A stretch of 64,000 nucleotides of DNA from Blastocystis sp. Blastoise (taxonomy: Eukaryota > Sar > Bigyra > Opalinata > Blastocystidae). Below, in pieces: positions 23,398 to 29,300 of the stretch. The position numbers and the translations under genes are program-made. The stretch is from assembly GCA_039096225.1 (NCBI GenBank), contig JBBPEB010000013.1, positions 89,501 through 153,500 of the forward strand, read 5' to 3'. Under the pieces are notes generated by a model. It ran no database searches. It saw only the letters and a program-made list of their open reading frames with translations, and was not told the DNA's origin. How positions within the stretch are numbered: position 1 is the stretch's first letter; every line of letters begins with the position of its first letter.

Positions 23398-26300
23398 ATG
23401 ATATTATCTTATATATTCATAGTATTTTCTGCTTTGTGTCTCTCTCCATATGGTTATTCCATATGTGGTGACGAGGAGTGTGATAAATGTACGTTGGCAT
23501 CATCAAGTGTGAATCATTGGCATGGATCTTCTGTAAAAACTAATTTTATCCTATATCACTACTTGTTTATATCATATAGCAATCGAATCTCAAATATTTC
23601 AATTGCTCAAGTTACTTATTTGATCAGTATCAAACTGTAGAAACCAAATATATGCTTCCTAATGGAATACTAGAACGATATGATACAGACATTGTGTATT
23701 TATGATTTATTTTACTTTATATTCCTCTTTTATTCTGTAATGTTTGTTTTCTACTTATTCTAAAAATAGATATGATCAATATCAATCATGGATTGAAAAG
23801 GAAGGGTCTCATGCCAACGAAGAGTGTAAACATGAAACTGCTAAACTATTATGTATGAATATTTTCCCGCCATGTACTAGTGCTTCTTCTTATGCTGTTT
23901 TCCCATGTAGAGAAAATTGTGATCGTTTAAAGAGGTATATAAGTATTCTATAAGATATATTTATAGTGGTGTTTTTTTGTATTTATGTTACACTATTTAT
24001 TATTAACTATATTTATTCTTTAGTATATGTGGTGATTCTATGATTGATTCTTGTCCTGAAGATGGCCCTTCTCAATCCGCTACGACACCTGGAAATGGTA
24101 TATATTATATATATAGTTTATTATTGATTATATAGAATAGTTTATAATTGTTAATAGTTGTTTATGATATATATATATTATTATACACTATGTAACAGTC
24201 TATACAATTATATAATAGTTATAATCTATTATATGTATATTATAAATATATATATATATATAGGTACTCATTATAATTCTAATAATAATTTATTATCCTG
24301 TTTTATGAACGAACAAAACATTTATAAGTATATATATATGTAAATTATTTTTAATGTTATCTCTCTTAACTGTTTTTTTAATTATCTTCTTTTTCTTTAA
24401 TTGATATTTTTGTAATAAATAAGATTAATAGTTGATTCATATTATTTATATATAGAAGTCATTGCTTAAATTCTCCTTTTAAATGTAATGACGCGAACTC
24501 TTTTCATCCTGAATGCTCTCATGTATATATATTGATTATATATTGATTATATATATAAATATTCATTATATATACATATATTAATTATACACATATATTG
24601 ACTAAATATACATATATTGCTTATATATACATATATTGCTTATATATACATATATTGCTTATATATACATATTTAGCTTATATATACATTATTGATTAAA
24701 TATTGACTCTCTTATATTATATCTTTATAAATAGTGTATATGTGAAGATGAAACTACAGGAATAACTTGTTCTCAATGTACTAACGATATGCAATGTCAT
24801 TTTCCTACACAAAACCTTGTATATATTAATATCATACATATATTATCTTGATATTCTGTTAACCTCTAATATATATATATATATACATGACATTCTCCAT
24901 GATAAAACATGGTCTTTATCTCTCTCTCTTATATATATATATATAGACATGTAATCATTCCTTATCTCCCTCTGTTTCTCTCTCTCTCTCGTGTATATCT
25001 GATAGGAGTATATCTATTCTAACCTCTCTCTTTGGACAACTCTTTATGACATTAGACTGGAACTTGAATTCTATAAACATGCAAATATATATATCCATCT
25101 TTTATCTTCTTATCTTCTTATTCATATATTTCTATTCATATTATTAATAAATAAATATTAACAGTATACTTCTTTAATTGTTCACATTACGGATCCTTAC
25201 AGTAGCAATAATCATCTTCTATCCATTCAGTATAATGATTGCACTGTATATATATACATATCATATTCAATGCATAATATATATATATATATATATATAT
25301 ATATATATAGACGGTTTCTTCTTTCCTCTGTTCGAAGTATTCTCTTCACAACCCGTATTGTCTTCGTTGCTCTAGTAATATCACTCTATATCTTCCTCCC
25401 AATCTCTCCCAAACACAATTACCCCTGACGTTTTATCAACTTTATCAACAACTCCGTACGGAAACACTATTCGGATGCGAACGAAACACAAATCTATGCA
25501 AATGGATACCTGAAAATGTTTTAGAGCAATCATTTACTTGTACGGAAGGCACATGCTCTATTCCTGTGCCTTCTTCATCATAGTATATATATATATAATA
25601 ATAATAATAATAATAATAATAATAATAATAATAATAATAATAATAATAATAATAATAATAATAATAATAATAATAATAATAATAATAATAATAATAATAA
25701 TAATAATAATAATAATAATAATAATAATAATAATAATAATAATAATAATAATAATAATAATAATAATAATAATAATAATAATAATAATAATAATAATAAT
25801 AATAATAATAATAATAATAATAATAATAATAATAATAATAATAATAATAATAATAATAATAATAATAATAATAATAATAATAATAATAATAATAATAATA
25901 ATAATAATAATAATAATAATAATAATAATAATAATAATAATAATAATAATAATATATAATGCTATCTATAAATCTTAATATCTTTAGTTCCAATCTCTTT
26001 TCTTTATATATTCTCCTTCTTCTATGTCTTCCTATCTCTATTCTCCTTCTTCTCCTCTCGTTTATATCACCCATGAAAACTGATACACCTACAGAACAAC
26101 GAATCAAAAACACTACTTCGTATATATATATATATATATCATTTTAGATTTCTTATTCATTATTTAGAATAATTCTATATCTATTTAATTATATATATAT
26201 AGATATATGACATTGAATCGTAGTCGAATGCTATTAACAACTTTAGTGGAATGTGATGAAGATAAAGGGGAATATACTCCTCATCATAAACATACGGTTA

Positions 26301-29300
26301 ATGAATTAGCTTGGAGTGATATATGTGTTCGAAATAAGGGGAAAACACTTATAAATAGTAAATTGTGTTCCTTCAAATCAAATGACGGTATTAATGCTCT
26401 TTTTGGTCCTACAGGTATATATATATATATATGTATAATTATATAAGTTATACTCTCTATCCTCTTTTGATTTCAAGTTATTCCCGTGAATTTATTCTTT
26501 CTTTATAAGTTTATCGCTTGTATTTATAGGTTGTGGAAAAACGACTCTTTTAAAGGCGCTTTCCGGTCGTTTAAATAAATCCGCGGGCTATGACGTAAGC
26601 GGCGTCATCTTCTTTAATGGTAAATGTATGAAGAGAGAACAAGTGGGTACAACTATTGGCTATGTGAATAATAGAGATAAACTATGTAAATATCTAACAG
26701 TAAGAGAGACTCTAGAACAAACACTAATTGTATCTCTTCCTTCTACAGTGTATATATATATATATATTATTTATTCTTTATTAGTACTTTATTTCTGTTT
26801 AATCTTATTATTATTATTTCTTTTATCTATATTTGTGTGTAATATATGTATATGTATATAATATAGTGAGAATGATGAGCGTAGTCATAAGATTGATTTA
26901 TTATTAAATGAATTAGATATGGCCGACGTACAGGACCAACAAATAGGCACTCTTTCTGAGGAACAACGCATTCTTATTAGGTTTATATATATATTTGTAT
27001 TATTCTTTTTTATTGATAATTATATTGTTGTATATCGAAATATATTATTTTTGTGATGATTCACAGATTCTATTCTATATACTATAATATATATCTATAT
27101 CTATATAGAATAGCTTTAGAAGTTCTTTCGAATCATAAAGTTATTCTTTTAGATCAACCATTCACAAATTTTACTACTAAAACATTTAAAAATGTATATA
27201 TATATATATATATATATATATATATATATATATATATCTTCTTCTAGTCTCTTTTTATTAATTAATTATATATATATAGATATTACATTATTTGGATGAC
27301 GTCGCCAAGGGTGGAATTGTTGTCGTTCTCTCATTCGCTGAACCAAGATCTATTGTACTCCGTACATGTAAAAATGTATATATATATAATACATATATAT
27401 ATATATATATAATACATATGTATATTACTCCTTTTCTTTTATAACTCTATTATATGAACAAGACATGTTTTATTCTTAATCCTATATATATACTTATATA
27501 TATATCTGTATAGATGTTATTATTGGGTAATAATGGTACTAATATTTATAAAGGCCTCACAAATGGTATTATTCCATATTTGGAGCGAAATGGATTCATT
27601 AAACCCAATATGTATAGTGAAGCTGATTATATTATGGAGGTGGTATGTCTTTTATTATTATTATTAATATATAAAGTGATATTCTTATTATTATATTATT
27701 GTTATCCTATTGGATATTTATTATTAAAAAGTTATATATATATATAGGTTTCAAATGCAGATGAATTCCAGTTAACTGCACTTACAAGTACTTATACAAA
27801 TAGTAAGAGGTATATATATATATATATATCACTCTATTATCCCTATATAAATTGCTATAGTTATAAGAATATACAAGGATGTATACAGGATTATGTATCT
27901 ACAAGTGTATCTACACCGATAGGAATTGAGGGAGAATTGAAACGTACACCTAGTGCTTTCGATATCCCGGGAGTAGTGCCTGCCAATTTGAAGCCAGAGG
28001 AACGAAAGAAATATATATATTTACAACGATTTAAACAGGTATATGGTATCAGCAGACGATTGGTTAAAGGATTTATCCGCCAATGGGATCGCATTCCTGC
28101 TAATGTATATCTATTATTCTATTTTCTTACTATTCTACTTTTTCTTGTTTATTCTAAATATGTGATTCTTATGAAATTTATATTTATATCTATATATATA
28201 GTATATAAGTTCTCTTTTCTTTGGTTTGCTAATTGGTTTATTCTTTTTCGATATTCACGGGGATAAGAATGGAACTGAAGAACTTTTCAATCTTATACTT
28301 GTCTTTGTATATATATACTATTATTTACATTAATTATTAATAATTGATTATTCTATTCTAGTTATTCTAGTTATTTATGATCATAACTACAATAATTCTA
28401 TTTATCTTACTCTATTCTCTTTAGTTATGTTATCCTCTGTTGGTTAGTGTCACCTATTCCTCTTGGTTCAAAACAGATCTTCGTATATATATGCGAGAAC
28501 ATATTGCAGGCTACTATAAACGATATATGTATACAACTCTTTATGTTCTTTATGACCTCCTATTACTTCGTATTCTACCCATGATCCTTTTCATATCCTT
28601 TATATATATATGTATAATTAATATATTTATCACTCTGAAAATATTAAATATCATTCTAAATTGTAATATTTATATTTATATTATATTTATATTATATATA
28701 TTTATATTTATATTATATTTATATTATATTTATATTATATTTATATTATATATATATTATATTTATATTATATTTATATTATATTTATATTATATTTATA
28801 TTATATTTATATTATATTTATATTATATTTATATTATATTTATATTTATATTATATTTATTATTCCATATATAATTAATAAATATCTGTTAGTTTATCCT
28901 TCATTGCTAACATTACTCCTATTTCTCTGATGACTAAAGTGTGCTATATTGAGGATTCCTTTAATATATCTATATATATCACACTTATCTGCTTAATGTC
29001 TCTCTATTCATCATTTATATCTACATTCTTAGATATATCCGGTAATTATTTTTATTTATTTATTCTTCTTCTTCTTATTATTATTATAAAAAATAATATA
29101 TATATTATCATCATTTTCTATTTCATTTGTTCTTAATCTGTTTTATTTCTATTATGAATTTATAAATAAATGAAAATAATTTGAATCTAATACTAAACAT
29201 ATATAATATCAATATTTATTCCTATATCTATTTCTAGTGATTATGAAGTCTGAAGTAGCTACTGCTATTGTATATTCGTTTCTTCTTATTCAAATATTGT

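What the first reader, a model, noticed from the sequence alone, without database searches (positions are those of the whole stretch)
23398..27400. Frizzled-type cysteine-rich domain fused to an ABCG transporter
Seen: a signal peptide, then cysteines spaced 8-6-10-3-6 around MNIFPPC and VFPCRENC, preceded by an MLPN segment, then EGF-like Cys pairs, a TM helix and an ABCG NBD/TMD. Known: Fz CRDs bind lipidated Wnts, sterols or fatty acids; ABCG proteins move sterols and lipids. Inference: a lipid-binding ectodomain presents or accepts lipids at the outer face of its own transporter. I do not know of this fusion being described.
Basis: partly seen in the sequence, partly recalled or inferred. 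Interest (0 to 1): 0.75.

Follow-up and report, generated by a model that had tools for sequence, protein, structure and literature searches.

The report
Frizzled-type domain on a transporter-like protein
A gut microbe related to Blastocystis carries at least two genes that seem to join a Frizzled-like, possibly lipid-binding outer domain to a membrane transporter whose ATP engine looks broken, which suggests a receptor or lipid catcher built from a transporter.

Summary
Spliced by hand, the gene (23398-29922, + strand, 23 exons, 1107 aa) reads without a stop as signal peptide, Fz domain, second Cys-rich part, TM helix, ABCG NBD and TMD. The Fz piece matches PF01392 at E 1.2e-8, 36.0 bits, above the curated 32.1; 27 of 28 PDB sequences listed at E<=10 are Frizzleds, all weak. 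The organism is Blastocystis sp. Blastoise: the NCBI model WA158_003712 (691 aa) holds only the transporter half. A divergent paralog on another contig has the same layout; two metagenomic ORFs carry the Fz part.
New here: the NBD is degenerate. The window gene keeps Walker A, but the catalytic Glu is Gln, the H-loop His is Ala, Q-loop and signature differ; the paralog lost Walker A too. So a pump loading lipid from its own ectodomain is less likely; a lipid-binding pseudo-transporter (receptor or catcher) fits better, but no function was tested. No cDNA, no usable structure model. EGF-carrying half-ABCGs (fungal Adp1) are known; Fz on one did not turn up in my literature searches.

The parts
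23398..29922 (+). whole gene, 23 exons / 22 introns (47-405 bp), 1107 aa predicted, stop TAA
   Evidence: exon 8 and the choices around exons 19-22 are less certain than the rest
23398..23532 (+). exon 1: hydrophobic N-terminus (signal peptide) and first Cys
   Evidence: hydropathy only
23658..24045 (+). Fz domain (residues 72-146), in exons 2-4 with introns 23696-23769 and 23935-24023; PF01392 E 1.2e-8, 36.0 bits; Cys 8-6-10-3-6-7
24264..25582 (+). second Cys-rich part of the ectodomain (exons 5-9); no Pfam family; intron 24819-25164 may hide a further exon
25583..25987 (+). intron 9, 405 bp, with (AAT)119 at 25597-25953; the public gene model begins behind it
25988..26119 (+). exon 10: TM helix, then the Met where NCBI WA158_003712 starts (MKTDTPTEQ)
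26390..27163 (+). ABC_tran core of the NBD (residues 460-597), E 1.9e-18; Walker A GPTGCGKTT kept
26952..26966 (+). altered signature LSEEQ in place of ISGGE
27155..27157 (+). Gln codon at the catalytic Glu of Walker B (LLDQP for LxDEP)
27337..27339 (+). Ala codon at the H-loop His (LSFAEPRS for FTIHQPRS)
28036..29508 (+). ABC2_membrane TMD (residues 762-970), E 5.7e-8

Best explanation
One gene makes a type I membrane protein: an outside-facing ectodomain made of a Frizzled-type CRD and a second Cys-rich part, one TM helix, then a cytosolic ABCG-type NBD and a TMD. The NBD has lost residues needed for ATP hydrolysis, so it most likely works as a pseudo-transporter: the CRD catches a hydrophobic ligand (sterol, fatty acyl chain or lipidated protein of host or microbe) and the ABCG body serves as membrane partner or receptor body, alone or with another half-transporter, rather than as a pump driven by its own ATPase. 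Shown by sequence: the architecture, the Fz match, the motif changes, a second gene of the same layout. Inferred: topology, ligand, partner, receptor or catching role.
For: Frame-consistent splicing. Fz. ABCG: TIGR00955 E 9.1e-51 (173 bits, below that model's cut-off of 736), ABC_tran 1.9e-18 and ABC2_membrane 5.7e-8, ABCG2 in PDB 6e-43. Paralog at C25: 37% identical over residues 18-209, NBD piece 2.5 kb downstream, exons open apart from one unresolved junction, Fz E 1.5e-5, ABC2_membrane 45.3 bits but no ABC_tran match, TIGR00955 E 1.7e-12. In the paralog one exon (L014:2930-3132) holds the last Cys pair, the TM helix and the cytosolic linker. Relatives P0108 and P0109 keep the Fz part (3.1e-5, 4.8e-7), which suggests that the ectodomain is maintained. 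Motif comparison. CRDs of this fold commonly bind small hydrophobic molecules (PMC3809587, passages); Blastocystis lacks CYP51, which its genome paper takes to suggest host sterols (PMC5608401, passages).
Against: No transcript. The public model starts at an inner Met behind the TM. Two AlphaFold2 jobs on relatives gave mean pLDDT 38.3 and 34.5, useless either way. The first about 19 profile positions of Fz (where, as I recall, C1 and C2 lie) are outside the match. A signature without SGG is no proof of death: the Dictyostelium row P0002 has LSLSQ with its other motifs intact. A partner could supply hydrolysis: a half-ABCG with SGAGKTT, SGGE and DEP is in the genome, so 'dead' holds for these chains only. 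The NBDs of P0108 and P0109 were not seen. Ligand binding is untested.
Confidence: 0.45

Rival explanations
1. Fz-ABCG is still an active lipid transporter: it pairs with a canonical half-ABCG such as the one at C20, and the CRD hands lipid to or takes it from the pore.
For: Walker A intact in the window gene; full TMD; a half-ABCG with SGAGKTT, SGGE and DEP exists; a non-SGG signature also occurs in P0002; yeast Aus1p and Pdr11p, ABC transporters, are needed for sterol uptake and expressed under anaerobic growth (PMC5602531, start of abstract in listing).
Against: With a canonical partner neither composite site would be complete: one gets LSEEQ as signature, the other lacks Gln, Glu and His (inference). 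The paralog lacks Walker A.
Confidence: 0.25
2. Two transcripts: a secreted Fz/Cys-rich protein, and an ABCG half-transporter starting at MKTDTPTEQ.
For: NCBI WA158_003712 is the second half only and of usual half-ABCG length; a 357-bp AAT run sits between.
Against: No stop after exon 9, splice sites and phase fit; a split would cut off the TM helix; paralog exon L014:2930-3132 carries ectodomain Cys, TM and linker together. Weak: no + strand TGTTTGTT, the polyadenylation motif of other Blastocystis, lies between exon 9 and the NBD, but none lies near this gene's own end either (next + site 40507), so the motif may not mark ends here. The public model skips two stretches that my model gives to the TMD and has one (LSFIANITPISLMTK) that mine leaves out, so neither model is settled.
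Confidence: 0.12
3. The CRD is not a true Fz domain but another small Cys-rich helical domain whose spacing mimics it.
For: 1 of 10 Cys-fixed shuffles matches Fz at 20.7 bits; paralog and both relatives stay below the cut-off (24.1-30.7 bits); only 3 of 4 copies matched at E<=1; PDB matches are weak one by one (best E 0.061; 0.23 with a profile of 4); no usable model.
Against: 36.0 bits over the cut-off for the window copy; 27 of 28 PDB sequences listed are Frizzleds, and 3 of 3 with the profile; same spacing 8-6-10-3-6-7 in 4 of 4 copies (my count).
Confidence: 0.12
4. Decaying pseudogenes: the motif losses are plain decay.
For: Several catalytic motifs lost in both copies; one junction of the paralog could not be resolved in frame.
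Against: Long open frames over 23 exons and through the rest of the paralog, with relatives of the ectodomains.
Confidence: 0.05

Closest known systems
Adp1-type half ABCG (yeast ADP1, clade V; plant ABCG24/28 recalled)
   Same: Signal peptide, Cys-rich ectodomain, TM, NBD, TMD in one chain; P0029 looks like such a protein by its sequence (the label Adp1-like is mine). [quoted passage not shown]
   Different: No Fz domain in P0029; its NBD motifs are canonical. Ectodomain likeness is short: BLASTP E 4e-4 over 39 aa, hhalign probability 34.9%.
Frizzled / Smoothened / sFRP CRDs
   Same: Cys spacing, Pfam Fz, lipid-binding precedent.
   Different: On an ABCG body instead of a 7-TM receptor; C-terminal part shorter (the Cys after the matched core follows by 7 residues, my count).
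NPC1
   Same: An Fz-like CRD that binds cholesterol (PMC3809587, passages).
   Different: RND-type body (recalled), no ABC domains.
Aus1/Pdr11 sterol importers
   Same: ABC transporters required for sterol uptake, expressed in anaerobic growth (PMC5602531, start of abstract in the listing).
   Different: Full-size, no Fz ectodomain, ATPase-competent (recalled).
Mouse ABCG3 (recalled as an ABCG with altered NBD)
   Same: ABCG with a doubtful ATPase (recalled).
   Different: No such ectodomain (recalled).

Membership tests
Fz domain (PF01392) | score above Pfam gathering cut-off | tested here: met
   36.0 vs 32.1 bits on the 104-aa piece; below the cut-off in paralog and 2 relatives; not listed for the full chain
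Fz domain (PF01392) | core Cys spacing 8-6-9/10-3-6 | tested here: met
   4 of 4 copies (my count)
Fz domain (PF01392) | remaining Cys and the conserved disulfides | tested here: inconclusive
   extra Cys exist before and after but are outside the match; models at mean pLDDT 38.3 and 34.5
ABCG half-transporter | NBD before TMD, one of each | tested here: met
ABCG half-transporter | Walker A | tested here: met
   GPTGCGKTT in the window gene; lost in the paralog
ABCG half-transporter | signature, Q-loop, catalytic Glu, H-loop His | tested here: not met
   LSEEQ, Asn, Gln, Ala; so by descent an ABCG, not shown to be a transporter
Adp1-type ABCG | Cys-rich ectodomain and TM before the NBD | tested here: met
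Adp1-type ABCG | homologous EGF-type ectodomain | tested here: inconclusive
   short weak match; no Pfam EGF
Wnt/Frizzled signalling receptor | 7-TM Frizzled body | tested here: not met
   body is ABCG

The most novel reading that the evidence does not exclude
Blastocystis-type gut protists turned half-ABC transporters into Frizzled-like lipid receptors: the ATPase decayed and the Fz ectodomain became the working part, for sensing or catching host sterols or lipidated proteins.
Probability: 0.25. Interest if true: 0.85.

Novelty: new variant of a known kind. Interest (0 to 1): 0.6.

Why it matters
Fz-like CRDs are lipid-binding modules best known from animal signalling, though they also occur in other eukaryotes (recalled). 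One on an ABCG body, with ATPase motifs lost in two copies, would show another way to build a lipid receptor, and gives a concrete candidate for how a gut protist that seems to lack CYP51 (PMC5608401, passages) handles host sterols. It also shows, in this case, a public gene model that lost its whole ectodomain next to a repeat-filled intron.

Tried and rejected
Structure: two AlphaFold2 jobs on P0108 and P0109, each aligned with the other and with window exon 3, gave mean pLDDT 38.3 and 34.5; no fold search was run on them. Relatives: one genome-contig scan with P0108 gave 1 locus, in a bacterial MAG (L016, 28%, query residues 119-190), dropped without study. Three protein searches used: 26 proteins listed of 7995 candidates scored; 82 of 4474; 2 of 287. 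The hits in 24 and 37 other than P0001 bear ABC Pfam domains and their Pfam columns list no PF01392; only P0029 was scanned by me and has no Fz. Rfam SSU search for the organism failed; the organism came from the NCBI name of P0001 instead. A census of canonical ABCGs and of further Fz-ABCGs in the genome failed (not completed), so 'two Fz-ABCG genes' is a lower bound; the PF01061 scan found only C20 and missed both genes described here. Pei and Grishin 2012 on FZ-CRDs (recalled) is not held. Literature for the fusion: (8,457 papers with 2 of 4 terms, 20 listed, 0 of 20 with 'frizzled domain'), 'abc transporter' with 'fz domain', 0 papers, 'abcg transporter' with 'frizzled' and 'ectodomain', 0 papers, 'blastocystis' with 'frizzled', 4 papers, one seen in passages, the others in the listing only, none of them about this protein by title. 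A first exon chain for the paralog's end started in a wrong phase and was replaced.
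Full report
What is there. The + strand gene starts at ATG 23398 and ends at TAA 29922. Its exons are short and separated by AT-rich introns (exon GC 32.9%, intron GC 13.6%); 22 of 22 introns are GT..AG, 15 of 22 begin GTATAT and 13 of 22 end TATAG. Joined strictly, 23 exons give 1107 residues without a stop. Exon 8 and the choices around exons 19-22 are less sure: the public model differs there, leaving out two stretches of mine and adding one. Intron 7 (346 bp) may hide another exon, because the paralog has more sequence there.

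The domains. Pfam finds ABC_tran (1.9e-18) and ABC2_membrane (5.7e-8) in the full chain and Fz (1.2e-8, 36.0 bits, cut-off 32.1) in the 104-residue piece 53-156; Fz is not listed when the full chain is scanned at E<=0.01, nor for the 354-aa ectodomain at E<=1. A whole-genome scan with PF01392 finds one place, exon 3 of this gene, E 4.9e-5, below the cut-off; it missed the paralog, so it is not exhaustive. In the PDB, 27 of 28 sequences listed at E<=10 are Frizzleds, the best at E 0.061, the other a dextranase at 0.1; each is weak alone. A profile of four copies lists 3 sequences at E<=1, all Frizzled-6, best 0.23. With all Cys held and the rest shuffled, 1 of 10 still matched Fz, at 20.7 bits: spacing helps, but does not explain 36 bits. 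The part behind the Fz domain has no Pfam match.

The organism. A protein search returned WA158_003712 of Blastocystis sp. Blastoise, 691 aa, 93% identical over 65% of the query; taxonomy. It starts at an inner Met directly behind the TM helix, in the exon after the (AAT)119 intron. So the ectodomain is missing from that public model. The search with the two ectodomains (candidates of about 130-415 aa) listed no Blastoise record; a model of another length would be missed.

Relatives. On contig C25 lies a second gene: residues 18-209 match at 37% identity, and NBD residues 579-653 match 2.5 kb downstream. Read by exons it has signal peptide, Fz core, Cys-rich part, TM, ABCG NBD and TMD, open to its stop except for one junction I could not resolve, L014 2281-2467. 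Its Fz piece scores E 1.5e-5, below the cut-off, its TMD 45.3 bits, and TIGR00955, an ABCG-type model, 1.7e-12; ABC_tran is no longer recognised. One exon of it (L014:2930-3132) carries ectodomain cysteines, TM helix and linker together, which supports the fusion without needing intron 9. Two proteins from Logan/ENA assemblies, P0108 (23 member sequences, 6 contigs) and P0109 (2 members, 1 contig), match the ectodomains (E 3.1e-29 and 2.2e-26) and both hit Fz below its cut-off. By eye P0108 resembles the C25 gene and P0109 the window gene (43% against 33% identity to the window copy). The Cys spacing 8-6-10-3-6-7 is the same in 4 of 4 (my count).

The ATPase. Aligned with P0029, P0002 and the half-ABCG at C20, the window gene keeps Walker A (GPTGCGKTT) but has Asn for the Q-loop Gln, LSEEQ for the signature, Gln for the catalytic Glu and Ala for the H-loop His. 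The two ABCG2 sequences whose alignments one search prints (6hbu, 6hco) show the same Gln; I recall them as E211Q trap mutants. P0002 has LSLSQ for its signature with DEP and His kept, so the signature change alone says little. The paralog has GPKQETLT for Walker A, VPYQQ for the signature, IDDAL for DEP and no His. The C20 gene shows SGAGKTT, ISGGE and CDEP; its H-loop was not located. So two ABCG-derived chains with large ectodomains lost residues for hydrolysis while staying open.

What it does. Fz-like CRDs share a pocket or groove for small hydrophobic molecules, as in Smo, Fz8 and NPC1 (PMC3809587, passages). Blastocystis lacks CYP51, read by the authors as a hint to host sterols (PMC5608401, passages). 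I therefore favour a lipid-binding pseudo-transporter. That is inference: binding, topology and partners were not tested. An active heterodimer remains possible, at lower odds because no composite site with C20 would be complete.

What is known. [quoted passage not shown] P0029 looks of that type. The second Cys-rich part here resembles it over about 39 residues only. I found no report of Fz on an ABC transporter; the library holds open papers only, and one paper on FZ-CRD architectures that I recalled is not in it.

Noticed in passing
window 5832-9233 (-): Long open frame (1133 aa) of a large surface-type protein with putative Ig-like repeats and a C-terminal TM helix (by eye).
   Followed up: no
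window 19659-22355 (-): Exons of a phosphoglucomutase-like gene next to the Fz-ABCG (by eye, not searched).
   Followed up: no
window 46509-48020 (+): Frame with a GTPase-like P-loop (PNVGKSSLINVLIG) and long acidic runs; looks like a ribosome-biogenesis GTPase, by eye.
   Followed up: no
window, 7 sites (e.g. 23741-23748 +, 26716-26723 -): TGTTTGTT, the Blastocystis polyadenylation motif of PMC5608401, occurs 7 times against 2.26 expected (0 of 100 shuffles reach 7); one lies in intron 2 of this gene, none near its end.
   Followed up: partly
G000 C2, C4, C8, C14, C19: Seven of 21 listed ABC_tran matches share the same E-value (7.9e-25), in open frames of 469-917 aa: perhaps a repeated gene (only 19 of 89 candidates were scored).
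   Followed up: no
L014 9181-9346 and window 4918-5060: A stretch of the gene behind the C25 paralog (NKINIFGGYTTQYWES) recalls one in a window gene (QTEFICGGYTSQSWNS, read); perhaps a TLDc-like end, by eye only.
   Followed up: no
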